Assembly: GCF_900188485.1 (NCBI RefSeq)
Contig: NZ_FZPH01000023.1
Span: forward strand, 1 to 64,000
From: Asanoa hainanensis
Lineage (GTDB): Bacteria; Actinomycetota; Actinomycetes; Mycobacteriales; Micromonosporaceae
Length of the DNA stretch: 64,000 nt
Direction of reading: 5' to 3'
Shown here: positions 35,189 through 48,183 of the stretch, piece after piece
Numbering within the stretch: position 1 is the first letter of the stretch
Layout of the letters: each line of letters starts with the position of its first letter
Translations under genes and position numbers: made by a program
The notes under the pieces: model-generated
What the model was told of the DNA's origin: nothing
Databases searched by the model: none
Seen by the model: the letters and a program-made list of their open reading frames with translations, nothing else

Positions 35189-36079
35189 ATGACGCGACAC
35201 CAACAACCGACTCTCGCCCGCCCGCCGCGCCTGCGCGCGGCCTTGCTCGGCATCGCGACGATGCTGGGCGTCCTGGCGCCTGCCGCCTTGTCCGGCCCCG
35301 CTCTCGCGGCCAGCCCCTACGAGCGCGGCCCGAACCCGACAGCGGCCAGCGTCTCGGCCACCACGGGACCCTTCGCGATCGCGTCGGTCTCGGTGGCCCG
35401 TGGCAACGGCTTCGGCGGCGGCGTCATCTACTACCCGACCGCCACCAACCAGGGGACCTTCGGCGGGATCGCCATCTCCCCCGGCCTCAACGGCACCTGG
35501 GCCGGCATCGCTTGGCTCGGTCCGCGGTTGGCCTCGCAAGGCTTCGTCGTGTTCGGGATCGAGACCAACAACCTCAACGACAGCCCGACCAGCCGCGGCA
35601 CACAACTGCTGGCCGCACTTGACTACCTGACCCAACGCAGCACCGTCCGCACCCGCGTCGACGCGGGCCGGCTGGCGGTGATGGGCCACTCGATGGGCGG
35701 CGGCGGCGCCCTCGACGCCGCGCTGCGCCGGCCCTCCCTGCAGGCCGCGATCGGCAATGCGCCGCACCTGCCGTCCGGAACTCTGTCGAACGACCGCGTT
35801 CCGACCATGATCTACGCGATGCAGAACGACACGCTCGTGCCGCCGTCCCGGCTGACCACGCTCTACAACAGCATCCCGGCCACGACCGAACGCGGCTACA
35901 TCCTGGTGACCGGCGCCGGCCACAACTACATCGGCCAGCCCAGCACGACGCTGGCCCGCACCATGATCCCGTGGTTCAAGATCTTCATCGACGACGACAC
36001 CCGCTACAGCCAGTTCCTGTGCCCGATGAGCAACCAGTCCGGCATCTCCCAGTACCGCAACAGCTGCCCGCTCAGCTAA
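35189..36079 (+). CDS. Secreted polyester hydrolase/cutinase-like alpha/beta hydrolase (PETase fold)
   Basis: 296 residues with a signal peptide ending near ALA-AS (about residue 40). The mature part SPYERGPNPTAASVSATTGP and the disulfide Cys278-Cys293 near the C-terminus match actinomycete cutinases such as the Thermobifida enzymes. The triad is Ser168 (GHSMGGGG), Asp214 (QNDTLVPP) and His245 (GAGHNY). Two substrate-cleft positions differ from typical PET-active members: the oxyanion/clamp Tyr in SPGYTG is Leu100 (SPGLNG), and the Trp-containing segment usual after AAIP is replaced by AAIGNAPHL. It probably hydrolyses an ester, such as cutin or acyl groups on plant glycans. LacI-box control with rhamnosidases supports a role in glycan breakdown. 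Confidence 0.88.
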   Translation: MTRHQQPTLARPPRLRAALLGIATMLGVLAPAALSGPALAASPYERGPNPTAASVSATTGPFAIASVSVARGNGFGGGVIYYPTATNQGTFGGIAISPGLNGTWAGIAWLGPRLASQGFVVFGIETNNLNDSPTSRGTQLLAALDYLTQRSTVRTRVDAGRLAVMGHSMGGGGALDAALRRPSLQAAIGNAPHLPSGTLSNDRVPTMIYAMQNDTLVPPSRLTTLYNSIPATTERGYILVTGAGHNYIGQPSTTLARTMIPWFKIFIDDDTRYSQFLCPMSNQSGISQYRNSCPLS

Positions 36080-36096
36080 CCCCGAAGGGTGTCCGT

Positions 36097-36124
36097 CAGG
36101 GATCCGGTCGGCGCCGGATCCCTG
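36097..36124 (+). terminator. Terminator after the cutinase-like gene
   Basis: CAGGGATCCGG (36097-36107) pairs perfectly with CCGGATCCCTG (36114-36124) across six bases; a short T run follows near 36137. Confidence 0.8.
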
Positions 36125-36160
36125 GCGGTGGGTGCTGTTTTCCTTTTCGGAAGTGTTTCG

Positions 36161-36233
36161 GAATTGGCCGGATCAGGCCACTCGCTATTCGCCAACCACC
36201 ACTCTGGACAGATTGGTGCCCGCAAATTAGTAT
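36161..36233 (+). promoter_or_regulatory. Promoter of the sugar dehydrogenase gene with shared upstream element, copy 2
   Basis: TGGACA (36205-36210), a 17-base spacer and TAGTAT (36228-36233) make a good sigma-70-type promoter. The 21-base element identical to 34989-35009 occupies 36161-36181, 23 bases before the -35. The leader to ATG 36352 is about 110 bases. Confidence 0.6.
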
Positions 36234-36351
36234 GCAGTTTCAAGCACTGGCGATCGGCTGGGTCGGCGACCACCCATCACCTGTTGCGAATGCGTTCGAG
36301 CGCGCAACATTTCCTCCTCTCTCGCGTAACCCTTTGAAGGGTCGTGTCGCC

Positions 36352-39213
36352 ATGCCCAAGATTCAACAACCCTCGTCTTTGAAACGTTTCGTTCGCGGCG
36401 GGGCTGCCGCCGTACTGCTCGTGAGCCTCACCGCGGCCGTGTTGAACACGGCAGGCCCGGCGGCGGCGGTTCCTCCCGCCGACTATCAGCAGGTCACCCT
36501 GGCCCGCGGGGTCGCCGAGGTCGGTGAGCCGATGTCGCTGACCGTCCTGCCCGACCGCTCAGTGCTACACACCGCGCGAAACGGTGTGGTGCGCCGCACC
36601 GACGTCAACGGAAACACCGCGGTCATCGGCACGATCCCGGTGTACTCCCATGACGAGGAAGGCCTGCAAGGCATCGCCGCCTCACCGAACTTCGCCACCA
36701 ACCGGCAGATCTTCCTCTACTACGCACCACCGCTTTCGACACCATCGGGTGACGCGCCCAATACCGGCACGGCGAGCACGTGGTCGACCTGGGCCGGGGT
36801 GAACCGACTGTCCCGGTTCACCTTGAACACCGACTTCACCATCAACCTGGCCAGCGAGGTCATCACGTTGACGGTGGCCACGAGCCGCGGTCTGTGCTGT
36901 CACGTCGGCGGTGACATCGACTTCGACGCCGCCGGCAACCTCTTCCTGTCCACCGGCGACGACACCAACCCGAACGCGTCGAGCGGTTACGCGCCGCTCG
37001 ACGAGCGCAGCGACCGCAACCCCGCCTATGACGCGCAGCGCAGCTCCGGCAACACGAACGACCTGCGCGGCAAGATCCTGCGCATCACTCCGACCGCGGC
37101 CGGCGGCTACACGATCCCGTCCGGCAACCTGTTCGCTCCTGGCACGGCGAACACACGGCCGGAAATCTACGCGATGGGGTTCCGCAACCCGTTCCGGATG
37201 AGCGTCGACCGGCCCACCGGCGTCGTGTACGTCGGCGACTACGGCCCCGACGCCGGCACGACGAGCTCGACCCGCGGCCCGAGCGGCCAGGTCGAGTTCA
37301 ACCGCGTCACCTCGCCCGGCAACTACGGCTGGCCGTACTGCACCGGGACCAACACCACCACCGAGACCTACAACGACTACAACTTCGCCACGAGCACCAG
37401 CGGCGCCAAGTACGCCTGCGCGGCCGGCGCCACGAACAACAGCCCGAACAACACCGGCCTGACGACCCTGCCCGCAGCACGGCCGGCCTGGATCCGGTAC
37501 GCCGGCGACGCCGGCAGCCCGAGCGAGTTCGGCTCCGGATCCGAGTCGCCCATGGCCGGACCGGTCTACCGCTACAACGCGGCGAACCCGTTGACGACCA
37601 AGTTCCCGCAGTCGCTGGACGGCCAGTTCTTCGCCGGCGAGTTCGGCCGGCGCTGGATCAAACCGATCGCGGTCAACGCCGACGGCTCCCGGGGCGCGAT
37701 CGACACCTTCCCGTGGTCCGGCACCCAGATCATGGACATGGCCTTCGGCGCCGACGGGTCCCTCTACGTCCTCGACTACGGGCTCGGCTGGTTCGGCGGC
37801 GACGCCAACTCGGCCGTCTACCGCATCGACTACGTCGGCACCGGAGGCAACCGGGCCCCGATCGCCGTCGCGACCGGCTCACCGACCTCCGGGTCGGCAC
37901 CGCTGCCCGTGACCTTCTCCTCCGCGGGAAGCAGCGACCCCGACGGCAGCGCGATCACCTACTCGTGGGCGTTCGGGGACGGAACCACGTCGACGGCGGC
38001 CAACCCGTCCAAGACGTACACCGCGAACGGCACCTACACCGCGACGCTGACCGTGCGGGATCCGCAGGGCGCCACGGGCACCGCCAACGTCATCGTCCGG
38101 GTCGGCAACACCGCGCCCACGCTGACGTTCACCACACCGACCAACGGTCGGCTGTTCTCGTTCGGCGACTCCGTGCCGTACACCGTGACCGTCACCGACC
38201 CGGAGGACGGCACGATCGACTGCGGCCGCGTCACGGTGAACTACGTCCTCGGACACGACACCCACGGCCACCCGATCACCTCGCGGACCGGCTGCTCCGG
38301 CACCATGGTCACGCCGATCGACGGCGAGCACGACACCTCGGAGAACCTGTTCGGCCTGCTCGCCGCGACCTACACCGACAACGGCGGGCTCACCGGCACC
38401 GCCCAGGTGACACTGCAGCCCCGCGCCCGTCAGGCCGAGCATTTCTCCTCGATGTCCGGCGTCACGATCGTCAACCAGACTCAGGCCCAGGGCGGCCAGA
38501 GCGTCGGCAGCGTCAACAACGGCGACTGGATCGCGTTCACCCCGTACGCGCTCTCGACCGCCACCTCGATCACCGCGCGGGTCGCCCGGTCCGCCACGGG
38601 TGGCACCGCCCGCACGATCCAGGTCCGGGCCGGTTCGGCGACCGGCACCCTGCTGGGAACGCTGACGGTGCCGAGCACGGGCAGCGCCACGACCTACACG
38701 GACGTGACCACGAACCTCACCAACCTTCCCTCCGCCCCGACAACCCTCTACCTCGTCTTCACGGGTCCGTCCGGCACCAACAACCTCTTCTCCGTCGACT
38801 CGTTCACGTTCCCGACCGGAACAAGCGGCGGCGGCAACGTCACCATCCAGGGTGAGGCGTTCAGCTCACAGAGCGGCGTCCAGGTCGCCAACCACACGGC
38901 GGCCGTCGGCGGCCAGACAGCCGGCTACATCGTCGCCGGCGACTGGGCCGCCTACAACAACGTGAACGTCGGCGGAGCCACCTCGCTCACCACCAGGTAC
39001 TCGGGCACCGCCAACGGCACGTTCCAGGTCCGAACCGGCTCGACCACCGGACCGGTCATCGGCTCGGTTTCTCTACCCAGCACCGGCAGCTACGACAGCT
39101 TCAGCACGGTGACCACCACCCTGACCGGGGTGCCGGCCGGCACGGCGAACGTCTACCTGACCTTCACCAGTGCCGGGTTCGACCTCGACCAGATCACCTT
39201 CGTGAAGCCCTGA
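36352..39213 (+). CDS. Secreted PQQ-type glucose/sorbosone dehydrogenase with PKD and two CBM6-like domains
   Basis: 953 residues. The signal peptide runs to about residue 42 (AGPAAAVPP). A six-bladed propeller of the soluble aldose dehydrogenase family follows to about 490 (HDEEGLQGIAASPNF, CCHVGGDIDFDAAGNLFLSTGDD, GFRNPFRMSVD). Then come a PKD domain (about 500-585, YSWAFGDGTTSTAANPSKTY), an Ig-like stretch, a CBM6-like domain from about 692 and a second from about 828 (GEAFSSQSGVQ, GDWAAYNNVNVGG). It likely binds glycans and oxidises a sugar outside the cell. ATG 36352 is assumed; TTG 36379 is an alternative. A LacI-type site lies within the first codons. Confidence 0.88.
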   Translation: MPKIQQPSSLKRFVRGGAAAVLLVSLTAAVLNTAGPAAAVPPADYQQVTLARGVAEVGEPMSLTVLPDRSVLHTARNGVVRRTDVNGNTAVIGTIPVYSHDEEGLQGIAASPNFATNRQIFLYYAPPLSTPSGDAPNTGTASTWSTWAGVNRLSRFTLNTDFTINLASEVITLTVATSRGLCCHVGGDIDFDAAGNLFLSTGDDTNPNASSGYAPLDERSDRNPAYDAQRSSGNTNDLRGKILRITPTAAGGYTIPSGNLFAPGTANTRPEIYAMGFRNPFRMSVDRPTGVVYVGDYGPDAGTTSSTRGPSGQVEFNRVTSPGNYGWPYCTGTNTTTETYNDYNFATSTSGAKYACAAGATNNSPNNTGLTTLPAARPAWIRYAGDAGSPSEFGSGSESPMAGPVYRYNAANPLTTKFPQSLDGQFFAGEFGRRWIKPIAVNADGSRGAIDTFPWSGTQIMDMAFGADGSLYVLDYGLGWFGGDANSAVYRIDYVGTGGNRAPIAVATGSPTSGSAPLPVTFSSAGSSDPDGSAITYSWAFGDGTTSTAANPSKTYTANGTYTATLTVRDPQGATGTANVIVRVGNTAPTLTFTTPTNGRLFSFGDSVPYTVTVTDPEDGTIDCGRVTVNYVLGHDTHGHPITSRTGCSGTMVTPIDGEHDTSENLFGLLAATYTDNGGLTGTAQVTLQPRARQAEHFSSMSGVTIVNQTQAQGGQSVGSVNNGDWIAFTPYALSTATSITARVARSATGGTARTIQVRAGSATGTLLGTLTVPSTGSATTYTDVTTNLTNLPSAPTTLYLVFTGPSGTNNLFSVDSFTFPTGTSGGGNVTIQGEAFSSQSGVQVANHTAAVGGQTAGYIVAGDWAAYNNVNVGGATSLTTRYSGTANGTFQVRTGSTTGPVIGSVSLPSTGSYDSFSTVTTTLTGVPAGTANVYLTFTSAGFDLDQITFVKP
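36380..36391. promoter_or_regulatory. LacI-type operator within the dehydrogenase signal-peptide codons
   Basis: TGAAACGTTTCG, one base off the perfect palindrome, lies in codons 10-14 (L-K-R-F-V). As in the importer operon, the site overlaps coding sequence for K-R-F, about 150 bases past the predicted -10. Confidence 0.65.
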
Positions 39214-39220
39214 CAGACCC

Positions 39221-39251
39221 ACTCCGGCCCGGATCGGCGCCGGGCCGGAGT
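39221..39251 (+). terminator. Rho-independent terminator
   Basis: ACTCCGGCCC (39221-39230) pairs with GGGCCGGAGT (39242-39251), followed by TTT. It begins 7 bases after the dehydrogenase stop. Confidence 0.85.
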
Positions 39252-39291
39252 TTTCAGCCGACTCAGTGTTTCAGCCGACTTTGGAGCCCAG

Positions 39292-40479
39292 ATGCGCAAA
39301 CTCGCCCTGGCAGCGGCGTTGTCCCTCCTCGCCGCTCTCTCCTTCACCGCCGTCTCCGCGCAGGCGGCCGACACCCCGTACGACGTGCTGGTGTTCTCCC
39401 GGACCGCCGGGTTCCGGCACGACTCGATCGCGGTCGGGATCTCGACCATCCAGACGTTGGGCGCCGCCAACAGCTTCACCGTCACCGCGACCGAGAACGC
39501 GACGGCGTTCACGACCGCGAACCTGGCCCAGTACGAGACGGTGGTCTTCCTCAACACGACCGGCGACGTCCTCAACACCGCACAGCAGAACGCTTTCCAG
39601 TCCTACATCGCCGCGGGCGGCGGCTACGTGGGCGTGCACGCCGCCGCCGACACGGAGTACTCCTGGCCGTTCTACGGCAACCTCGTCGGCGCGTGGTTCC
39701 AGTCGCATCCGGCGCAGCAGAACGCCACTGTGATCTTCGAGGACCGCACCCACCCGGCGACGGCCGGTCTTCCCTCCAGCGTCGTGCGATTCGACGAGTG
39801 GTACAACTACCGCACCAACCCCCGCTCGAGCGCACGCGTCCTTGCCTCGCTCAACGAGTCCTCGTACAGCGGCGGCACCATGAACGGCGACCACCCGATC
39901 ACCTGGTGCAAGGAATACGCCGGCGGCCGGTCGTTCTACACCGGCATGGGCCACACCCAGGCGTCCTATTCGGAGGCCAACTTCCGGGCTGTGCTCCTGG
40001 GCGGAATCCGTTACACCGCGCGGCGCGTGGACGCGAACTGCGCGCCGGGCCCGAACACTCCGCCGACGACACCGCCGCCCACCGGTGGGACGAACGTGAC
40101 CGTCCAGGCCGAGGCGTTCAGCTCCCAGAGCGGCGTGCAGGCCGTCGCGAACTCCGGCGCGGTCGGTGGGCAGCGGCTCGGCTACATCGCGGCCGGCGAC
40201 TGGGCCGCGTACAACAACGTCAACGTGGGCGGCAGCCGTTCGCTGCAGGCACGGGTGTCCTCCGGCGGCAACGGCGGCACCCTGCAGATCCGTACTGGCT
40301 CGCAGTCCGGCCCCGTCCTCGGTTCTGTCGCGATATCCAACACCGGCGGATGGAACAACTACGCCACCGTCACAGCCAACCTGAGCGGTGTGCCGACCGG
40401 CAGCGCAAACGTGTATCTGACCTTCACCGGCACCGGCAGCCTGTTCGACCTCGACCAGTTCGTCTTCGTCAAATCCTAG
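39292..40479 (+). CDS. Secreted ThuA-like protein with CBM6 domain
   Basis: 395 residues: signal peptide to about 26 (SAQAAD), a ThuA/glutamine-amidotransferase-like domain (about 29-240: DVLVFSRTAGFRHDSI, GGGYVGVHAAADTEYSWPFY, WCKEYAGGRSFYTGMGHT), a Pro/Thr linker and a CBM6 domain (about 263-395). ThuA-like domains are common in sugar utilisation but their reaction is not settled. The CBM6 is nearly the same as the last CBM6 of the preceding gene (EAFSSQSGVQ, GDWAAYNNVNVGG). The start is 78 bases after the dehydrogenase stop, behind a terminator, so it may have its own promoter. Confidence 0.88.
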   Translation: MRKLALAAALSLLAALSFTAVSAQAADTPYDVLVFSRTAGFRHDSIAVGISTIQTLGAANSFTVTATENATAFTTANLAQYETVVFLNTTGDVLNTAQQNAFQSYIAAGGGYVGVHAAADTEYSWPFYGNLVGAWFQSHPAQQNATVIFEDRTHPATAGLPSSVVRFDEWYNYRTNPRSSARVLASLNESSYSGGTMNGDHPITWCKEYAGGRSFYTGMGHTQASYSEANFRAVLLGGIRYTARRVDANCAPGPNTPPTTPPPTGGTNVTVQAEAFSSQSGVQAVANSGAVGGQRLGYIAAGDWAAYNNVNVGGSRSLQARVSSGGNGGTLQIRTGSQSGPVLGSVAISNTGGWNNYATVTANLSGVPTGSANVYLTFTGTGSLFDLDQFVFVKS

Positions 40480-40612: not shown

Positions 40613-40819
40613 ATGCATCGAATCGCCTCGCTCGGCGACCGCCTGCTCAGTTCCCTGGTGCCGAAGGCCAAGGCCTCGGCAGCCTGTCCGCCGTCGTTCT
40701 ACCAGTACCGCTGCTACCGCAACGGGGTCAGCGGTCTGTACCAGCGACGCTCCTGCATCTACATCGCGGGCTGTCTGGTCTCCTGCGGCAGCTGGGTGAC
40801 GATCGGCTACTGCGTCTAA
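40613..40819 (+). CDS. Precursor of a small six-cysteine exported peptide
   Basis: A 68-residue product. Residues 1-23 (MHRIASLGDRLLSSLVPKAK then ASA) form an amphipathic basic leader with no proper hydrophobic core, ending in A21-S22-A23, an AxA signal-peptidase-I site. The predicted mature peptide (24-68, 45 residues) begins ACPPSFYQYRCYRNG and has six Cys (25, 34, 48, 54, 58, 67), six Tyr and one Trp, consistent with three disulfides. GGAGAGG lies about 10 bases upstream of ATG 40613. Directly downstream are a thioredoxin-like protein, an ABC exporter, an S26 peptidase and a MauE-like protein. I do not recognise the peptide; an antimicrobial or signalling role is inference. Confidence 0.78.
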   Translation: MHRIASLGDRLLSSLVPKAKASAACPPSFYQYRCYRNGVSGLYQRRSCIYIAGCLVSCGSWVTIGYCV

Positions 40820-40840
40820 CTGGTGCCCGGTCAGCGTTAC

Positions 40841-40882
40841 GTGCGGGACCGGCGGGTGTTCGGCGGCCCTCCGGTCCCGCAC
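40841..40882 (+). terminator. Strong hairpin between peptide gene and maturation genes
   Basis: GTGCGGGACCGG (40841-40852) pairs perfectly with CCGGTCCCGCAC (40871-40882). The stem begins 22 bases after the peptide stop and ends 21 bases before the thioredoxin start. There is no T tract, so it is more likely an attenuator or mRNA-stabilising element giving excess precursor. Confidence 0.65.
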
Positions 40883-40903
40883 CGACTCACGAAGGAGCTC
40901 AAG

Positions 40904-41434
40904 TTGGCGTACTTGTCCGCAGCGGTGGCGCTGGTCGGCGCACTGTGCCTGTTCGATCTGGTGCTCAGCCTCGGCGTCATCCGGCGGCTGCGCGAGCAGA
41001 CCCACCTCATCAACCAGCTGGCAGCCTCCACCACCGGCACCACGGCGCCAGTGGGCGCCACCGTCGAGGAATTCGCGGCTACCACGACCTCCGGTCGCGT
41101 CGTGTCCCGTGCGTCGACCGAGGAGCGGACGCTCGTCGGGTTCGTCTCGCCGAGCTGCGCGCCGTGCCAGGAGCTGCTTCCCGCCTTCGAGGGGTACGCC
41201 CGCGGCTTCGCGGGTGCGGTGGTCTCGGTCGTGGTGGGCGAGCCGGACGAGGCGAGCGAGTACGCTCGGCGCCTCGGCCAGCTCGGCGAGGTCGTGGTCG
41301 AGCCTTCGGGCGGCCCGATGGCAACCGCGTTCGGCGTCGGCGGCCTGCCGGCGTTGTGTGTCGTCGACGCGCGGGGACGGGTGGTGGCCAGCAGCGCGAC
41401 GGTCGAGACGCTGCCCACGCCGGTCCCCGCATGA
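40904..41434 (+). CDS. Membrane-anchored thioredoxin-like protein (MauD/TlpA type)
   Basis: About 176 residues from TTG 40904, which has GAAGGAG six bases upstream; GTG 40823 in the same frame would add 27 residues that overlap the hairpin. One N-terminal membrane helix (LAYLSAAVALVGALCLFDLV) is followed by a linker and a thioredoxin-like domain with GFVSPSCAPCQELLPAF; the redox pair is Cys85/Cys88. VGGLPALCVVDARGRVV is the usual cis-Pro region. It should form, reduce or shuffle disulfides outside the membrane, most likely those of the adjacent six-Cys peptide. It overlaps the ABC gene by four bases (ATGA). Confidence 0.85.
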   Translation: MAYLSAAVALVGALCLFDLVLSLGVIRRLREQTHLINQLAASTTGTTAPVGATVEEFAATTTSGRVVSRASTEERTLVGFVSPSCAPCQELLPAFEGYARGFAGAVVSVVVGEPDEASEYARRLGQLGEVVVEPSGGPMATAFGVGGLPALCVVDARGRVVASSATVETLPTPVPA

Positions 41435-43281
41435 TCGAGCGCCTGTCGCCACGCCAGGTCGGGACGAACCTGGTCGCCGCCCTGCGGCTGACCCTTACGG
41501 CGGCGCCAGGTGCCACCATCGCCTACGCCCTCAACTCCGCAGTGTCCGGGCTGATGCCGGTGGCGGCGGCATGGCTGACCAAGCTGCTGCTGGACCGGCT
41601 CGGCGCGCCGGGCGCCTGGCCCGCGCTGCTCGGCCCCGTGTCGGGTCTGGTCGTGCTGGGTGTCCTCATGGGGGTCTCTCCGGCCGTCGGCCAGTACCTG
41701 CACGGACGACTCAACCGCGCGGTGGCGATCCTCTCGATGGACCGGCTCTACCACTCGGTCGGCCAGCTCAACGGCATGGGGCACATCGAGGATCCCCAGT
41801 TCCGCGACCAGCTCGTGGTGGCGCAGCAGGCCGGTCGCGGCGGTCCGGGCCGGCTGGTGGAGCACGCGTTCGGCATCGCCCGCGGCATGCTGACCCTCAG
41901 CGGCTTCGTGGTCGCGCTGTTCCTTCTGGACCCGTGGCTCGCGCTGGTGGTGCTGCTGGCGGGCGCTCCAGCGCTGGCGGCTCAGTTGCGCCTGAGCCGC
42001 GAACGCGCCACGCTGCTCGGCCGGCTCGCCCCGCTGGAACGCCGGGAGCTGCACTATGCCGACCTGCTGGTCAGCCTGCCGGCGGCCAAGGAGCTGCGGC
42101 TGCTCGGGTTGGGGCCGTTGTTCCGCGAACGCATGGTCCGCGAGATGCGTGCGGCCGGCGGCGAGCAGGAACAACAGGACCGCCGCGAGGCCGGGGCGGA
42201 GACCGCTCTGGCCGTGCTCGCGTCGGTGGTCACCGGCGCGAGCCTGCTGTGGGCGGTGTGGCTGGCCGCGAACGGCCACCTCACCGTCGGCGACGTGGCG
42301 ATGCTGATCGCCGCCGTAGCGGGAGTGCAGGCCAGCGTGCAGGCGATCGTGGCGCTGGTCGCCGGTGCACACGAAGCGTTGCTGCTGTTCCACCAGTTCC
42401 GTGCCGTGACCGACATCGGACCGGATCTGTCCGTGCCGGAGATACCCGCGCCCACCCCTGTGCTGGCCGAGGGCATCACGTTCACCGACGTGTGGTTCCG
42501 TTACGGCCCCGACCAACCGTGGGTCCTACGTGGGCTGCACCTGACCATCCGGCAAGGCGAGGCAACGGCGCTGGTCGGGCTCAACGGCGCGGGCAAGAGC
42601 ACGCTGATCAAGCTGCTGTGCCGGTTCTACGATCCGACCCGGGGCGCGATCCGTTGGGACGGCACGGACCTGCGCGAGATGGATCCGGTGGCGTTCAGGT
42701 CCCGCATCGGTGCGCTCTTCCAAGACTTCATGGAGTACGACCTCGCGGTCGCCGAGAACATCGGCGTGGGTGATGTCGAGGCGCTGGCGGACCGTGCACG
42801 CATCACCGCGGCCGCGGAACGCGCCGACGCCCACGACCTGGTAGGACGGCTCCCCTCCGGCTACGACACTCTGCTGTCCAGGATCTTCATGGACGACGCC
42901 GGTCCCGACGGTGGGCGAACCGGCACTCTGCTGTCCGGCGGGCAGTGGCAGCGCATCGCCCTCGCCAGGGCCTTCATGCGGGACCGGCGTGACCTGATGA
43001 TCCTCGACGAGCCGACCTCGGGGCTCGATCCCGAAGCCGAGTACGAGATCCACCGGCGGCTCCGCCAGCACCGGTCCGGGACGACCAGCGTGCTGGTCTC
43101 CCATCGGCTCTCCGCGGTCCGCGACGCGGACACGATCGTGGTGCTCTGCGACGGCAGGGTCTCCGAACGCGGCACCCACAACCAACTGATGGACAACCGG
43201 GGACCGTACGCACGCCTTTACCGCCTGCAGGCCGACGGGTACGCGGACGGCCAGACAACGCTGGCTGCGCAGGCCTCGTGA
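41431..43281 (+). CDS. ABC exporter, fused permease-ATPase
   Basis: 616 residues. An N-terminal membrane domain of about six helices (to about 330) is joined to an ATPase with Walker A LNGAGKST (near residue 385), Q loop LFQDFMEYDL, signature LLSGGQWQRIALARAF and Walker B LMILDEPTSGLD. The family is the peptide/lipid exporters (MsbA/LagD-like). No C39 protease domain is present, in keeping with a separate S26 protease immediately downstream. It presumably exports the cysteine-rich peptide. ATG 41431 overlaps the thioredoxin stop, and its stop overlaps the S26 start. Confidence 0.9.
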   Translation: MIERLSPRQVGTNLVAALRLTLTAAPGATIAYALNSAVSGLMPVAAAWLTKLLLDRLGAPGAWPALLGPVSGLVVLGVLMGVSPAVGQYLHGRLNRAVAILSMDRLYHSVGQLNGMGHIEDPQFRDQLVVAQQAGRGGPGRLVEHAFGIARGMLTLSGFVVALFLLDPWLALVVLLAGAPALAAQLRLSRERATLLGRLAPLERRELHYADLLVSLPAAKELRLLGLGPLFRERMVREMRAAGGEQEQQDRREAGAETALAVLASVVTGASLLWAVWLAANGHLTVGDVAMLIAAVAGVQASVQAIVALVAGAHEALLLFHQFRAVTDIGPDLSVPEIPAPTPVLAEGITFTDVWFRYGPDQPWVLRGLHLTIRQGEATALVGLNGAGKSTLIKLLCRFYDPTRGAIRWDGTDLREMDPVAFRSRIGALFQDFMEYDLAVAENIGVGDVEALADRARITAAAERADAHDLVGRLPSGYDTLLSRIFMDDAGPDGGRTGTLLSGGQWQRIALARAFMRDRRDLMILDEPTSGLDPEAEYEIHRRLRQHRSGTTSVLVSHRLSAVRDADTIVVLCDGRVSERGTHNQLMDNRGPYARLYRLQADGYADGQTTLAAQAS

Positions 43282-43721
43282 TGGTGGTCGCCACGGTAGT
43301 TGTCGCCTCGTCGCTGGTCGCGGCGTGGTGGGCGATGCGCCGATGGCTGCTCGTGGTGACGGTCGACGGGTCCAGCATGTGGCCGACGTATCGCGAGGGC
43401 GACCGGCTGCTGGTCCGGCGCGTCGGGCTGGACCGGGTCCGCGAAGGTCGTGTGGTCGTGGTGGCGCTGCCTCCGGTGCCCAGGATCGATACTGCCCCGG
43501 ACTGGGGCCGACGGGTGCTGATGGTCAAGCGGGTCACCGCCGTGCCGGGAGACGCCGTGCCCCCCGCCGTGCCGGTGCCCGACACGCGCGTGCCCCCTGG
43601 GTCCTTTGTGGTCATGGGGGACAACCCGAATGGCAGCTACGACTCACGAACCGTGGGTTTCGTCCCCGCCAGCGCGCTGGTCGGCATGGTGGTGCGGCTG
43701 ATGGCAACGGGAGAGGGCTGA
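43281..43721 (+). CDS. S26-family signal peptidase
   Basis: 146 residues, one N-terminal membrane helix. Catalytic Ser32 is in VDGSSMWPTYREGD and Lys83 in LMVKRVTAVPGD; MGDNPNGSYDSR is the third conserved box. It is much shorter than a housekeeping LepB, as in peptidases dedicated to one substrate. Signal peptidase I enzymes cut after AxA, which is exactly how the leader of the peptide at 40613 ends. The start ATG 43281 uses the last base of the ABC stop (TGATG); GTG 43278 is possible. Confidence 0.9.
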   Translation: MVVATVVVASSLVAAWWAMRRWLLVVTVDGSSMWPTYREGDRLLVRRVGLDRVREGRVVVVALPPVPRIDTAPDWGRRVLMVKRVTAVPGDAVPPAVPVPDTRVPPGSFVVMGDNPNGSYDSRTVGFVPASALVGMVVRLMATGEG

Positions 43722-43724
43722 GAC

Positions 43725-44252
43725 ATGGAGTACGTCGTGGTGGCCACTCGTGTCGTAATGGCCGTCGTGTTCGTTGCTGCTCTGGCGTCCAAGGTGCGTG
43801 GTCGACCGTCCTTCAAGGCCTTCGTCAGGTCGGTCCGGCCATGGGTGTCCGCGCGCCGCGCGCCTGCGGTGGCCCTGTTCGTGGTGGCCGCCGAAAGCTT
43901 GTGCGTGGTGCTCCTGGTGCTTCCCGGTGCGGGCGGCGCCGGCCTGGCCGCCGCCGCTGCCGTCCTCGTGGGGTTCACTGCGGCGATCGGTCGGGCGATC
44001 TCCACGCGACGGGCGGCGACGTGCCGGTGCTTCGGGTCGAGCGAGCGTCCGCTGACCATGATCCATGTGGTGCGCAATGGGCTGCTGCTGACTCTGGCAC
44101 TCTGCGGCCTCGCCGCGAACGCGAACGGCTCCCCCGCCGTGAGCCACGACGCCGGGCTGCTGATCGCGGCGTCCACCGGCGTGGCGACGGCACTGATTCT
44201 CATGCGTTTGGACGATGTGGTGGACCTGTTGCGCCCGGGTCGCGCCTGGTAG
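43725..44252 (+). CDS. MauE/DoxX-like redox membrane protein
   Basis: 175 residues and about four to five membrane helices. The cytoplasmic or juxtamembrane motif TCRCFGSSERPLTMIHVVRNGLL, with Cys100 and Cys102, marks the MauE family. In methylamine utilisation MauE and MauD are both needed for the disulfide-rich light chain of methylamine dehydrogenase. Here a MauE-like and a MauD-like protein sit with a six-Cys peptide, so a role in supplying or recycling redox equivalents for its disulfides is likely. It starts 3 bases after the peptidase stop. Confidence 0.87.
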   Translation: MEYVVVATRVVMAVVFVAALASKVRGRPSFKAFVRSVRPWVSARRAPAVALFVVAAESLCVVLLVLPGAGGAGLAAAAAVLVGFTAAIGRAISTRRAATCRCFGSSERPLTMIHVVRNGLLLTLALCGLAANANGSPAVSHDAGLLIAASTGVATALILMRLDDVVDLLRPGRAW

Positions 44253-44334: not shown

Positions 44335-44610
44335 ATGCACAGCCATGACGATGCCTCGGCATCGGTCGACTTTGGACAATGGGTGAAGTCACGGCGACTA
44401 GCGGAACTGCTCACCCAGGAACAGCTGGCCGAGCGGGCCGGCCTGAGCGTGCGCACCGTGCGCAACCTGGAAGCCGGCCGGAGTAAGGCCCGCCTGCCCA
44501 CCAGGCGCCTGGTCATCGTGGCCCTCGGTGGTTCCCGGCTCATCGACGCCGCGGCGATGCACCTCGATTCCGGCCCTCCGCGTCCCGCGCCCCCTGACCC
44601 GAACCGTTAG
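44335..44610 (+). CDS. Small XRE-family HTH regulator
   Basis: 91 residues. DFGQWVKSRRLAELLTQEQLAERAGLSVRTVRNLEAGRSKARLPTRR is a complete XRE helix-turn-helix; the short C-terminal tail is Pro-rich and has no recognisable ligand domain. It lies 14 bases before the ABC permease gene, so it may be the first gene of an XRE-ABC operon and regulate it. Start ATG 44335, with GGGGGCG upstream. Confidence 0.82.
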   Translation: MHSHDDASASVDFGQWVKSRRLAELLTQEQLAERAGLSVRTVRNLEAGRSKARLPTRRLVIVALGGSRLIDAAAMHLDSGPPRPAPPDPNR

Positions 44611-44624
44611 GGAGCAGAAGCAAC

Positions 44625-47432
44625 GTGTTCGGCTACATCTTCGCGCACGTGCGCCGCAGACCCGCACGGTCACTGGCGTTGATCCTGGGCGTCCTGGTCG
44701 CGACGACCGGCTTCGTCGTGCTCACCGCCAGCACCACGACCTCGCGGCTCGCGATGGTCGGCACCGTCGCGGAAGGCAGCCGCGCCCCGTACCAGATCCT
44801 GGTCCGCCCACCCGGTGCTCGCACCGACCTCGAGCGTGACAGAGGCCTGATCCAGCCGAACTTCCAAGCCGGCACCCATGGCGGCATCACACCCGCACAG
44901 TGGCAGCAGATCCAGGACGTACCCGGCGTCGACGTCGCGGCACCGGTCGCCATGCTCGGCTACACCCTCGCGTCGGTGACCGTGGACGTGGACCTCACTG
45001 ACCGGATCGACCCGCGGCTGACCCGGCAGGTGCTGCGCGTGCGCCCGGTCTGGAGCGCCGACCGTGCACTGACCTCCGCACCCGACGACGTCGAGGCGTT
45101 CGTGTACGTCACCCGCCGCCCGGTGCTGTGGCCACCGGCCCCGACGCCGGACGACACCGAGCTCCCGCCCGCGTTTCCGGGGGCCGCCGCCTGCGGCTCG
45201 GGGACGCCCGCGCCGCACGAGGTCGCCGAGGACGGCACCCGGGTGCCGCTGTGCGTCGGCTATCAGGCGCTGCGCCAGACCAGCACCAACCGCCGCGTCT
45301 TCGACATGGTCGTGCAGGTCCTGCCCGACGGCCGCTACACCTCCTGGAACTCCACACCGAGCGACCGGATCACGCTCACCGTGCTGGCCCCGATGGCCCT
45401 GCTCGTCGCGGCCGTCGATCCCCAGGCCGAGTCGGCGATGGTCGGCCTCGACCGCGCCGTCATCGCCGGACGCTACCTGTCCGCCTCCGACCGACTCACC
45501 CGGACACAGGTCCAGGGATTCCCGGTCACGACCGCACCTGCGCTGCTCACCGCCCACGCCAACGTCGACGAGTCCATCGCCGCCACGGTCGATCGCGTCA
45601 CCTCCGTCGCCGAGGACAGCGCGCCGAAGGACCTGTCGACCAAGGCGCTGCGACAGCAGAGCGTCGCCCGGCTGCCGGACGTACCCGCCGTTCCCATCGA
45701 GCACGCCTACCAGCGGATCATCCGCGACGACGCCGGCGGCTATCGCGACGGAGCACCCGTTGGCGGCCAGATCACCGAGGTGGTCCGGATCGGCACACCG
45801 CGGTACACCGTCGCCGCGGACGGCACCCTCATCCCGCGACCGCAGCCGCCCGCCGAGAACGGCCGCCCACCGGACGAACAGAGCGGCGCCTGGGCCGTGC
45901 CCAGCCCATGGTTGGGTCACGACACGGGCTTCCGCTCGTCGACCTGGCTGACACTGCACAACGACGACCTTCAGCCGTGGGTGTTCGCCGCCCAGGTCGG
46001 CGTCTTCGACCAGGCGAAGGTCGCCTCGGCCGACCCGCGCACCTCCGTACCGCTGGAGACCTACACGCCCACCCAGGCCATTGGTGCCGACCCGGCCACG
46101 CGAGACCTGCTCGGCCAGCGCCCGCTGCTGCCCAGCGACAACCTCGGCGGCTACCTGGCGACCGCACCCAGCGTGCTCATCTCCCTGAACACGCTGCGGG
46201 AACTCATCGCCCAGACGCCGCGACCGGTCGACGACGCTATCAGCGTCATCCGGGTCCGTGTCGTCGGCGTCAGTGGCTACGACGACCTGTCACGGGAACG
46301 CGTACGCCTGGTGGCGCAGGACATCGCCGTGCGCACCGGGCTCGACGTCGACATCGTCCTCGGGTCCTCACCGGCTCCGCAGACCGTGTCGCTGACCGCG
46401 GGCACCTTCGGCCGCCCCGCCCTGACCGTGGCCGAGCCCTGGTCCAAGCTCAACGTCGCCACCACGCTGGTCACGGCGATCGACCGCAAGAGCGCACTGC
46501 TCTTCGGCCTGATTCTGATCGTCTGCGGGCTGTTCCTGGCCAACGCGGTCACCGCCGCCGTCCACGACCGCCAACGCGAGCTCGCCATCCTGACCTGCCT
46601 CGGTTGGGCACGGTGGCGGGTCTTCACCGCGATCCTCGGCGAGCTCGTGCTACTGGGCCTGGTCGCCGGTGTACTGGCGGCCACGCTGGCCTGGCCCGCC
46701 GGCCATGCGGCCGGCACGCCCGTGCCGATCGGCCAGGCCGCGTTAGCCGTACCGGCGGCGATCGGACTGACGATCCTGGCCGGGCTGTTGCCGGCCGTCC
46801 GCGGCAGCCGCAGGCATCCGGTAGCGGCTCTCTCCCGGACCGTATCCCGACCGCACCGGCGCGCTGGGCGCCGCTCCCGGTCAATCGCAGCTCTCGCGCT
46901 CACCAACGTGTGGCGCACGCCCGGCCGCGCGCTCGTGGGCAGCGTCGCGCTCGCGGTCAGCGTGTGCGCGCTCGCACTGCTGCTCGTCCTGCAGCGGACC
47001 TTCCACGGGGCCGCGACCGGCACCGTCCTCGGCGACGCGGTCGCCCTCTCGGTGCGCGGGGTGGATCAGACCGCGGTCGTCATCACCGTGGCGCTCGGAG
47101 TCCTTGCCGTCGTCGACGTCCTGTACCTCAACCTGCGCGACCGCGCCTCCGAACTGGCCACCCTGCAGGCGATCGGCTGGTCGGGTGGCGCGCTGGGACG
47201 CCTGGTCGCGTACGAGGGCGTGGTCCTCGCCCTCGTCGGCGCGCTGCTCGGCGCCGCGGCGGCGGCGGGTCTGGCTCTCGGCTTCTCCGGCGGCGCCCAG
47301 ATGGCGAGCGTCATCCTCACCACGGGGGCCGCGGCCGCCGCGGGCGTCGTCGTCACCGTCCTGGCCGCCACCGTTACGGCGCTGTGGCTGCGTCAGGCCG
47401 TCCCCACCGCCGCGTTGTTGGCCGAGGAGTAG
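44625..47432 (+). CDS. Large ABC transporter permease (FtsX/MacB type)
   Basis: 935 residues. An N-terminal helix (SLALILGVLVATTGFVVLTA), an extracytoplasmic region of about 550 residues, then two FtsX blocks: DRKSALLFGLILIVCGLFLANAVTA with DRQRELAILTCLGWARWRVF, and VITVALGVLAVVDVLYLNLRDR with ASELATLQAIGWSGGALG. Both blocks are in one chain, so a single copy can act as a dimer equivalent. Such proteins use the ATPase cycle to move or expel peptides and lipids at the membrane surface rather than import solutes. It forms a pair with the ATPase 4 bases downstream. Start GTG 44625. Confidence 0.88.
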   Translation: MFGYIFAHVRRRPARSLALILGVLVATTGFVVLTASTTTSRLAMVGTVAEGSRAPYQILVRPPGARTDLERDRGLIQPNFQAGTHGGITPAQWQQIQDVPGVDVAAPVAMLGYTLASVTVDVDLTDRIDPRLTRQVLRVRPVWSADRALTSAPDDVEAFVYVTRRPVLWPPAPTPDDTELPPAFPGAAACGSGTPAPHEVAEDGTRVPLCVGYQALRQTSTNRRVFDMVVQVLPDGRYTSWNSTPSDRITLTVLAPMALLVAAVDPQAESAMVGLDRAVIAGRYLSASDRLTRTQVQGFPVTTAPALLTAHANVDESIAATVDRVTSVAEDSAPKDLSTKALRQQSVARLPDVPAVPIEHAYQRIIRDDAGGYRDGAPVGGQITEVVRIGTPRYTVAADGTLIPRPQPPAENGRPPDEQSGAWAVPSPWLGHDTGFRSSTWLTLHNDDLQPWVFAAQVGVFDQAKVASADPRTSVPLETYTPTQAIGADPATRDLLGQRPLLPSDNLGGYLATAPSVLISLNTLRELIAQTPRPVDDAISVIRVRVVGVSGYDDLSRERVRLVAQDIAVRTGLDVDIVLGSSPAPQTVSLTAGTFGRPALTVAEPWSKLNVATTLVTAIDRKSALLFGLILIVCGLFLANAVTAAVHDRQRELAILTCLGWARWRVFTAILGELVLLGLVAGVLAATLAWPAGHAAGTPVPIGQAALAVPAAIGLTILAGLLPAVRGSRRHPVAALSRTVSRPHRRAGRRSRSIAALALTNVWRTPGRALVGSVALAVSVCALALLLVLQRTFHGAATGTVLGDAVALSVRGVDQTAVVITVALGVLAVVDVLYLNLRDRASELATLQAIGWSGGALGRLVAYEGVVLALVGALLGAAAAAGLALGFSGGAQMASVILTTGAAAAAGVVVTVLAATVTALWLRQAVPTAALLAEE

Positions 47433-47436
47433 AGGG

Positions 47437-48183
47437 TTGACCGACCACCACGAGACGGCCGCGATCGAGTGCGTCGACGTCGTCAAGCGTTTCCGGGCCG
47501 GAGACGGCTGGCTGACGGCCGTCGATGGCGTGTCGCTGCGGATCGACGCCGGCGGGATGACGGCGCTGACCGGACCGTCCGGGTCAGGCAAGTCGACGTT
47601 GCTGCATCTGATCGGAGCGATCGAGAAGGCCGACTCGGGCTCGATCCTGGTCAATGACGCGGAGGTCACCACGCTCGGCCGCACGGGTCTGACCGCGTAC
47701 CGCCGCAGCATCGGTTTCGTGTTCCAGCGCTACCATCTGATCGCCGCGCTGACCGCCCTGGACAACGTGATCGCACCAGTGCTTCCGTACCGGACCGCCT
47801 ACAACAAGACGGCTCGGGCCCGCGAGCTGCTCGCCACCGTCGGGCTGGCAGGGCGGGAGGAAGCCCTGCCCGCTCGACTGTCCGGCGGCGAGCAACAACG
47901 GGTCGCCATCGCCCGCGCCCTGATGGGATCACCGCGGGTTCTCCTGGCGGACGAGCCGACCGGCAACCTGGACTCGCAGTCAGGCGACGCCGTCCTCGAC
48001 CTCCTCGATGACCTGCGCCGCGACCACCGGATGACGGTTCTGATCGCCACTCACGAACGACAGGTGGTCGAGCGCTGCGACCGGGTCATTCGCCTCCGCG
48101 ACGGAGCCTTGGCGGAGGCCTCGGCCGGACAGGACCGGCCCGCTAGCCAGGCGCACAGCGTTGTGCCCTGGCAGGCGCCGTGA
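47437..48183 (+). CDS. ABC transporter ATP-binding protein (MacB/LolD type)
   Basis: 248 residues. Walker [34 protein letters not shown], signature [16 protein letters not shown] and Walker [13 protein letters not shown] are typical of the LolD/MacB/BceA class. TTG 47437 is the start, with GAGGAG 6 bases upstream at the end of the permease gene. Together with the permease it may protect the cell from a peptide, possibly the one encoded upstream, but this is inference from proximity only. Confidence 0.9.

What the first reader, a model, noticed from the sequence alone, without database searches (positions are those of the whole stretch)
40613..44252. Self-contained export, cleavage and disulfide system for a six-Cys peptide
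Seen directly: a 68-residue peptide with a basic 23-residue leader ending ASA and a 45-residue Cys/Tyr-rich core is followed by a membrane thioredoxin (CAPC), an ABC exporter without a protease domain, a short S26 peptidase (Ser32/Lys83) and a MauE-like protein (CRCF). All genes after the peptide overlap or nearly touch. Known: signal peptidase I cuts after AxA, and MauD with MauE supports the disulfide-rich methylamine dehydrogenase light chain. Inference: this is a dedicated pathway for a secreted disulfide-knotted peptide, with an S26 protease replacing the usual C39 or signal-peptide route. I know of no named family for the peptide.
Basis: partly seen in the sequence, partly recalled or inferred. 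Interest (0 to 1): 0.9.

Follow-up and report, generated by a model that had tools for sequence, protein, structure and literature searches.

The report
Shared pathway for cysteine-rich secreted peptides
A small gene set in soil actinobacteria appears to trim, disulfide-bond and export a family of tiny cysteine-rich peptides, and in some species a single scattered set seems to serve dozens of different peptides, which would make it an unstudied bacterial peptide arsenal.

Summary
In detail: window 40613-44252 encodes a 68-aa peptide (23-aa leader ending ASA, six-Cys core), a membrane thioredoxin, an ABC exporter without C39 domain, a short S26 peptidase and a MauE protein. The linkage is real: 17 of the 18 best named exporter relatives have the peptide within 10 kb, 0 of the other 62; peptide and thioredoxin co-occur in 32 of 101 related genomes (35 and 37 positives). 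No Pfam or NCBIfam family was found. Cores vary, but 121 of 130 precursors have an even Cys number. Beyond the finding: some genomes look many-to-one. G012 has 58 peptide matches but one exporter, one MauE, two thioredoxins and at least two S26 genes. Charge patterns put the thioredoxin, S26 and MauE active sites on the cytoplasmic face, against the assumed outside cleavage; this is inference. Prior art: decRiPPter (PMC7794033) listed Streptomyces candidate RiPP families with mauE/mauD, probably including this one, without experiments on them in the parts read. No activity, cleavage or disulfide has been shown.

The parts
40613..40819 (+). precursor peptide, 68 aa: leader 1-23 (cut inferred after ASA), core 24-68 with Cys at 25, 34, 48, 54, 58, 67
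   Evidence: member of the leader-conserved family in alignments A1, A7, A8
40904..41434 (+). membrane-anchored MauD-like thioredoxin, CAPC; likely start TTG 40904 (frame open from 40823)
   Evidence: AhpC-TSA just over cut-off; MauD model 37.5 bits, below its cut-off of 188.6; start from relatives
41431..43281 (+). ABC exporter, membrane part fused to ATPase, no C39 peptidase domain in the Pfam listing
43278..43721 (+). short S26 peptidase, Ser32/Lys83 dyad, one N-terminal hydrophobic segment followed by an Arg pair (start GTG 43278 or ATG 43281)
43725..44252 (+). MauE-family membrane protein, CRCF motif at residues 100-103
   Evidence: (PF07291, 82.4 bits, cut-off 27)

Best explanation
This is a maturation and export cassette for a family of small Cys-rich peptides. 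Steps: the precursor is made with a short amphipathic leader (roughly DRxLxxLVPxxxAxA) that is not a Sec signal (seen in the sequence). The S26 peptidase removes the leader after AxA (inferred from the conserved motif, the conserved dyad and the linkage). The thioredoxin and MauE form a redox pair that turns the Cys residues into disulfides, MauE passing electrons to the membrane, probably to a quinone (inferred). The ABC exporter carries the product out (inferred). My preferred order, at about even odds, is trimming and oxidation at the inner face, then export, because positive charges place all three active sites inside. The cassette occurs as a self-contained unit (as here) and, in some genomes, as a scattered set that probably acts in trans on dozens of precursors. 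The products are most likely secreted competition peptides, but no activity evidence exists.
For: Linkage: 17 of the 18 best named exporter loci (L145-L162) hold a peptide gene, 0 of the other 62; 12 of those 18 have all five genes called in the locus. Sets on S. clavuligerus, S. atratus and Streptomyces sp. plasmids, whose small ORFs match the profile at 37.6-40.4 bits. Co-occurrence in 101 genomes: 32 with both, 3 peptide-only, 5 thioredoxin-only, 61 neither (Fisher p 1e-17, not corrected for kinship). Even Cys number in 121 of 130 precursors. Pooled dN/dS of six putative ortholog pairs about 0.55 for leader and 0.64 for core. In trans: G012 has 58 peptide matches, 56 of them over 10 kb from any cassette gene found, and one exporter; G030 35 peptides and two exporters; G009 20 and one. 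Same machinery: the complete cassette lies between pheT and argC in G052 (and after pheT in G040, with further genes before argC), and the G012/G030 thioredoxin with a SARP-like gene lies at that same junction. Topology: K+R after exceeds K+R before the anchor in 42 of 43 thioredoxins and 29 of 32 S26 proteins; the MauE CxC loop is K/R-rich.
Against: No expression, mass, cleavage or disulfide data. The AxA count (128 of 130) is partly built in, because the search profile rewards those alanines. Six of the 18 loci lack genes in my calls: L147 and L157 no MauE; L156 and L158 no S26; L154 no peptide and no S26; L162 peptide only; the NBC_00376 plasmid has no annotated MauE. Single dN/dS pairs range widely, some near or above 1 (for example L091/L244 core dN 0.36, dS 0.34). 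Nine of 130 precursors have odd Cys numbers. Positive-inside is a rule of thumb, one thioredoxin and three S26 proteins run against it, disulfides are unusual in a reducing cytoplasm, and MauD is usually thought periplasmic (recalled). That one exporter serves dozens of peptides is inferred from copy number and common leader. No tree-based control for co-occurrence was run.
Confidence: 0.75

Rival explanations
1. Outside order: the ABC exporter carries the whole precursor, then S26 cuts and thioredoxin/MauE oxidise at the outer face.
For: Signal peptidase I and DsbE/ResA-like thioredoxins normally act outside (established knowledge); AxA with an upstream Pro resembles a signal peptidase site. 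The thioredoxin profile matches ResA-type thioredoxins.
Against: Charges flanking the anchors point the other way in 42 of 43 thioredoxins and 29 of 32 S26 proteins; of three other S26 genes of the window's genome that could be read, two show the normal pattern (3 and 2 K/R before, 0 after) and one is neutral (0 and 0). The MauE CxC loop is K/R-rich.
Confidence: 0.35
2. Signalling or developmental peptides rather than weapons: the same maturation route, but products act as messages or cell-surface structures of the producer.
For: No shared candidate immunity gene was noticed, by eye, beside the dispersed G012 peptides (not tested systematically); SARP-like regulators flank several cassettes (one annotated as a BTAD-domain regulator).
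Against: Cores differ greatly between paralogs of one genome while the leader stays, which fits diversification more than messaging.
Confidence: 0.25
3. The peptide is a redox, metal-binding or maturation partner of the membrane proteins (for example a small metallochaperone), not a secreted product.
For: Even numbers of Cys would also fit metal binding.
Against: Conserved removable-looking leader, S26 and exporter linkage, and variable Cys spacing across paralogs.
Confidence: 0.08
4. Dispersed copies are decaying gene relics and chance ORFs; only cassette copies matter.
For: Some copies are broken: the same-genus copy L031 lacks most of the core and a few matches hold stops. Some ortholog pairs show dN/dS near or above 1 in the core.
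Against: 50 of 51 recovered G012 copies have even Cys numbers, G030 counterparts keep most Cys, pooled dN/dS is below 1, and 61 of 64 genomes without the thioredoxin have no match.
Confidence: 0.07

Closest known systems
decRiPPter candidate RiPP families with mauE (three) and additionally mauD (one), Streptomyces (PMC7794033)
   Same: MauE, in one case with MauD, in candidate clusters selected for a small precursor, transporter, peptidase and regulator; S. viridosporus T7A is named there, and I find the cassette in S. viridosporus NRRL 2414 (L148)
   Different: The paper states at least 8 Cys in these precursors (L148 has 6); in the parts read there is no leader family, no dispersed copies and no experiment on these families. 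Its S2 table was not readable here, so identity with this family is likely but unverified (section 7 read in full; other passages)
Actifensins, defensin-like bacteriocins of Actinomyces (PMC6989792)
   Same: 69-aa precursor, leader of 32 and core of 37 with six Cys, 6-Da mass loss fitting three disulfides, and one genome with homologs over two contigs
   Different: Propeptide has a G-x-E motif before the core; the locus described has other ABC genes and a subtilisin-like protease, and the passages seen name no MauE or S26 (passages)
Prochlorosins / SyncM system of picocyanobacteria (PMC9872173, PMC10783134)
   Same: One shared enzyme for many precursors, up to 79 SyncA substrates
   Different: Chemistry there is lanthionine formation; here thioredoxin/MauE and S26 (abstracts in search listing only)
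Methylamine dehydrogenase maturation (MauD, MauE)
   Same: MauE family (PF07291 over cut-off) and MauD-like thioredoxin side by side
   Different: No MADH structural gene noticed in the window (not searched genome-wide); MauD model far below cut-off
Nickel superoxide dismutase maturation protease (TIGR02754)
   Same: Short S26 peptidase thought to trim a non-Sec leader (recalled)
   Different: 48.0 bits against a cut-off of 63.25

Membership tests
Class II bacteriocin with C39-type exporter | ABC exporter with N-terminal C39 peptidase domain and double-glycine leader | tested here: not met
   No C39 match among the Pfam families listed for the ABC; leader ends AxA in alignments
Sec-secreted peptide | signal peptide with a hydrophobic core | tested here: not met
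   Leader maximum 10-residue hydropathy 0.94 for the window peptide (median 1.05, 90th percentile 1.71 over the family) against 2.5-3.0 in three signal-peptide-like controls; no dedicated signal-peptide predictor was available
decRiPPter mauE/mauD candidate families | precursor with at least 8 Cys beside mauE (and mauD) | tested here: inconclusive
   Gene content agrees; the window precursor has 6 Cys; the paper's precursor table was not readable
Actifensin (AfnA) | G-x-E before the mature peptide and afnB-I gene set | tested here: not met
   AxA here, different genes
Methylamine dehydrogenase maturation | MADH subunit genes in the same cluster | not tested
   No MADH gene noticed in the cassette's surroundings, but no search for one was made
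Signal peptidase S26 | Ser/Lys dyad and S26 profile | tested here: met
   PF10502 80.8 bits (cut-off 22.9), TIGR02227 77.9 (cut-off 47), dyad conserved
MauE | PF07291 profile | tested here: met
   82.4 bits, cut-off 27
MauD | TIGR02661 over cut-off | tested here: not met
   37.5 bits, cut-off 188.6: MauD-like, not MauD
RiPP | ribosomal precursor with removed leader and post-translational modification of the core | not testable with these tools
   Precursor and leader architecture present; cleavage and disulfides need mass spectrometry

The most novel reading that the evidence does not exclude
A new class of bacterial peptide product with an inside-out disulfide factory: S26, a thioredoxin and MauE all work on the cytoplasmic face, trimming and oxidising leader-bearing peptides before an ABC exporter releases them, and in some actinobacteria one scattered set of these genes acts in trans on about 20-58 diverse Cys-rich peptides, a many-to-one arsenal.
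Probability: 0.35. Interest if true: 0.92.

Novelty: new variant of a known kind. Interest (0 to 1): 0.8.

Why it matters
It defines a recognisable leader and gene set, so precursors annotated only as hypothetical proteins can be found. It offers a bacterial parallel to defensin or venom-peptide arsenals, and a testable case of one maturation pathway tolerating dozens of different Cys-rich cores, which would be useful for making such peptides. If the topology inference is right, it would also be a case of disulfide formation on the cytoplasmic side in actinobacteria. A cassette in Streptomyces clavuligerus (L271) makes it testable in a laboratory organism.

Tried and rejected
Rejected: Sec export and C39 export (membership test). 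The search for related loci with the peptide alone found nothing among named genomes (125 pattern matches, none confirmed); the exporter alignment worked. PDB sequence searches with the peptide gave two weak unrelated hits (E 0.16 and 0.29) and with profile A7 none; the MauE profile also found none. Pfam gave two weak sub-cut-off hits for the window peptide (Med13_C E 0.04, PABC_AtC3H46 E 0.36), taken as chance. AlphaFold models were poor, so no fold search was run. An upstream motif found post hoc in G012, GTCCACNNTGGAC with at most one mismatch, occurs in 12 of 51 peptide upstreams, 5 of 126 other genes of the same loci and 0.2% of shuffles: a lead only. Plasmid search with the window peptide found none, with the thioredoxin 29 records, all Streptomyces, Embleya or Nonomuraea. 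Literature searches aimed at this family gave only PMC7794033 as relevant for MauE-linked RiPP candidates; several lists were capped (20 of 32, 12 of 23, 12 of 54, 15 of 98 and 15 of 23 papers shown), subscription papers are mostly missing, so absence from print is not established. PMC13192320 was a false hit on an author name.

Counts and dropped rows: an earlier count of 133 precursors (124 even, 131 with AxA) contained the same gene under two start sites; recounted by the last 30 residues it is 130 (121 even, 128 with AxA). Seven of the 58 G012 matches are not among the 51 recovered ORFs: six were not in the fetched regions and one (L110, a stop inside) gave no ORF; one further weak ORF (L092, E 0.03) was dropped. 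The six pairs are six of the seven best-scoring reciprocal pairs (L103/L243 left out), and their orthology was not checked by synteny one by one. In one search at most 61 candidates per genome were scored, 15 and 11, so copy numbers and distribution are lower bounds (27 of 394 genomes of the class; thioredoxin profile in 2 of 296 of the phylum; both include the window's own). S26 was not searched across all of G012; two were seen. Gene calls come from a simple codon-position script of mine, so missing genes may be call errors. The 23 MauE proteins were filtered for C.CF and length. The three plasmid S26 proteins are not in the topology count; as annotated, the S. atratus one has no clear anchor, though a longer start is possible. 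Weak peptide hits in G032, G094 and G096 (E 0.003-0.01) were counted as positives.
Full report
What is there. The window carries, on the + strand, a 68-aa peptide gene (40613-40819) followed by a membrane thioredoxin, an ABC exporter, an S26 peptidase and a MauE protein. One correction: the relatives aligned to the thioredoxin begin where the window has TTG 40904 with AAGGAG before it, so the thioredoxin probably starts 84 nt after the peptide gene, while thioredoxin, ABC, S26 and MauE are tightly coupled (two 4-nt overlaps and a 3-nt gap). At E up to 0.01 neither Pfam nor NCBIfam has a family for the window peptide or any of the 46 members of A7, and the PDB gave no meaningful match.

A real family with a conserved leader. 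Searching 101 related genomes (the window's own included) with the peptide found 19 with a match at E up to 0.01; a 28-member profile found 35. The alignments show a conserved leader, roughly DRxLxxLVPxxxAxA, and a very variable core. Among 130 distinct precursors the Cys number is even in 121 and odd in 9; 6 (60 precursors) and 8 (43) are commonest, range 4 to 10. The profile does not select for parity. AxA was found at the expected place in 128 of 130 (shuffled leaders gave 44 on average for the earlier 133-member list), but this count is partly built in by the profile. The leader is not Sec-like: its highest hydropathy is 0.94 in the window peptide and 1.05 at the family median, against 2.5-3.0 in three signal-peptide-like controls.

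It belongs with the four genes. The thioredoxin profile matched 37 of the 101 genomes at E up to 1e-10; 32 have both thioredoxin and peptide, 3 peptide only (weak, E 0.003-0.01), 5 thioredoxin only and 61 neither (Fisher p 1e-17, not corrected for kinship). Hosts of the 17 include Nonomuraea, Streptomyces, Rhizocola, Micromonospora, Embleya, Nocardiopsis, Actinomadura, Thermomonospora and Lentzea. All five genes were called in 12 of the 18; the exceptions are L147 and L157 (no MauE), L156 and L158 (no S26), L154 (neither peptide nor S26) and L162 (peptide only). Plasmids of S. clavuligerus and S. atratus carry the full set, and one of Streptomyces sp. NBC_00376 carries it without an annotated MauE; their small ORFs are annotated only as hypothetical proteins and match the profile at 37.6-40.4 bits. 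One relative's contig has the same length, 128,009, as a Rhizocola hellebori contig with the same peptide, so the window's genome, of the same family, is probably in the Micromonosporaceae; this is inferred.

Many peptides, one machine. G012 has 58 peptide matches at E up to 0.05 (55 at 0.01), G030 35, G009 20 and G044 9. Exporters of this kind at E below 1e-140: G012 one, G030 two, G009 one, G044 three. G012 has two thioredoxins, one MauE and at least two S26 genes. In G012 these lie on three contigs, the exporter and one S26 side by side; 56 of the 58 peptide matches are more than 10 kb from any of them by the coordinates. I recovered 51 G012 peptides as ORFs and 34 from G030. Six putative ortholog pairs gave pooled dN/dS near 0.55 (leader) and 0.64 (core), with single pairs ranging from well below 1 to about 1 or above: on the whole constrained genes. 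The link between scattered and compact forms is visible: in G052 the complete cassette and a SARP-like gene sit between pheT and argC, in G040 the same follows pheT with further genes before argC, and in G012 a lone thioredoxin and in G030 a thioredoxin with one peptide sit, with a SARP-like gene, at that same pheT-argC junction. By eye, the exporter with S26 and the lone MauE also keep the same neighbours in G012 and G030. In these genomes the parts look like remnants or relocations of one cassette. That the single exporter serves the dispersed peptides is inference from copy number and common leader.

Which side of the membrane. In 42 of 43 thioredoxins and 29 of 32 S26 proteins, more Lys and Arg follow than precede the anchor segment (means 0.07 before and 3.49 after; 0.47 before and 2.31 after); one thioredoxin and three S26 proteins show the reverse. 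Of four other S26 loci in the window's genome, three could be read: two have the normal pattern (3 and 2 before, 0 after) and one is neutral (0 and 0). In MauE the loop with CxC is rich in Lys and Arg, as is the loop two helices before it, while the loops between are not. By the positive-inside rule all three active sites would face the cytoplasm, where the precursor is made. This favours trimming and oxidation before export, against the assumed outside cleavage. It is a rule-of-thumb inference; I put the inner-face order at about even odds.

Relation to what is known. [quoted passage not shown] S. viridosporus is named there and another strain carries the cassette here (L148). So the general idea is in print as a candidate list. 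The leader family, the S26 and AxA logic, the distribution, the dispersed many-to-one form and the topology inference were not seen in the searches made (several lists capped). Actifensin is similar in size and Cys number but has another leader and gene set (passages). Prochlorosin-type systems are the precedent for one machine with up to 79 substrates (abstract in listing).

Verdict. The pathway assignment is strong by comparative evidence; the chemistry and the biological role are untested. The most surprising result is the many-to-one organisation. I rate it a new variant of a known kind (ribosomal peptide with leader, dedicated protease and exporter), because decRiPPter's candidates probably overlap and nothing is shown in the laboratory.

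Noticed in passing
L127 9763-12701; L133 12030-14573: Peptide plus thioredoxin (and S26 in L127) stand beside an adenylation-enzyme-like gene of about 490 aa and a carrier-like gene of about 350 aa (judged by eye from the sequence), possibly adding an acyl or aminoacyl group.
   Followed up: no
L085-L124 upstream regions (G012): Palindrome GTCCACNNTGGAC with at most one mismatch upstream of 12 of 51 peptide genes, against 5 of 126 other genes: perhaps a shared regulator; found post hoc.
   Followed up: partly
L125 10018-10764, L138 4576-7626, L139 12221-14926, L272 2231-5041: SARP/BTAD-like regulators stand beside cassette genes (by similarity for L125 relatives, by annotation for L272, otherwise by eye); the window has a small HTH gene instead.
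   Followed up: partly
window 44335-44610 and 44625-48183: HTH gene (HTH_3 over cut-off), then an FtsX-like permease and a further reading frame just downstream of the cassette; could be regulation or self-protection. Conservation was not tested.
   Followed up: no
L031 5993-6178: Same-genus relative G002 has a copy with an intact leader but a broken core and no usual start codon in frame, besides a full cassette elsewhere (L139): probably a decaying copy.
   Followed up: no
L246 8067-8573 (window genome, contig 31): A second MauE-like gene of the window's genome stands without thioredoxin, exporter, S26 or peptide hits in the 17 kb fetched.
   Followed up: no
window 35971-40479: Two neighbouring secreted-looking proteins share similar C-terminal stretches of about 120 aa, probably carbohydrate-binding modules (judged by eye).
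   Followed up: no
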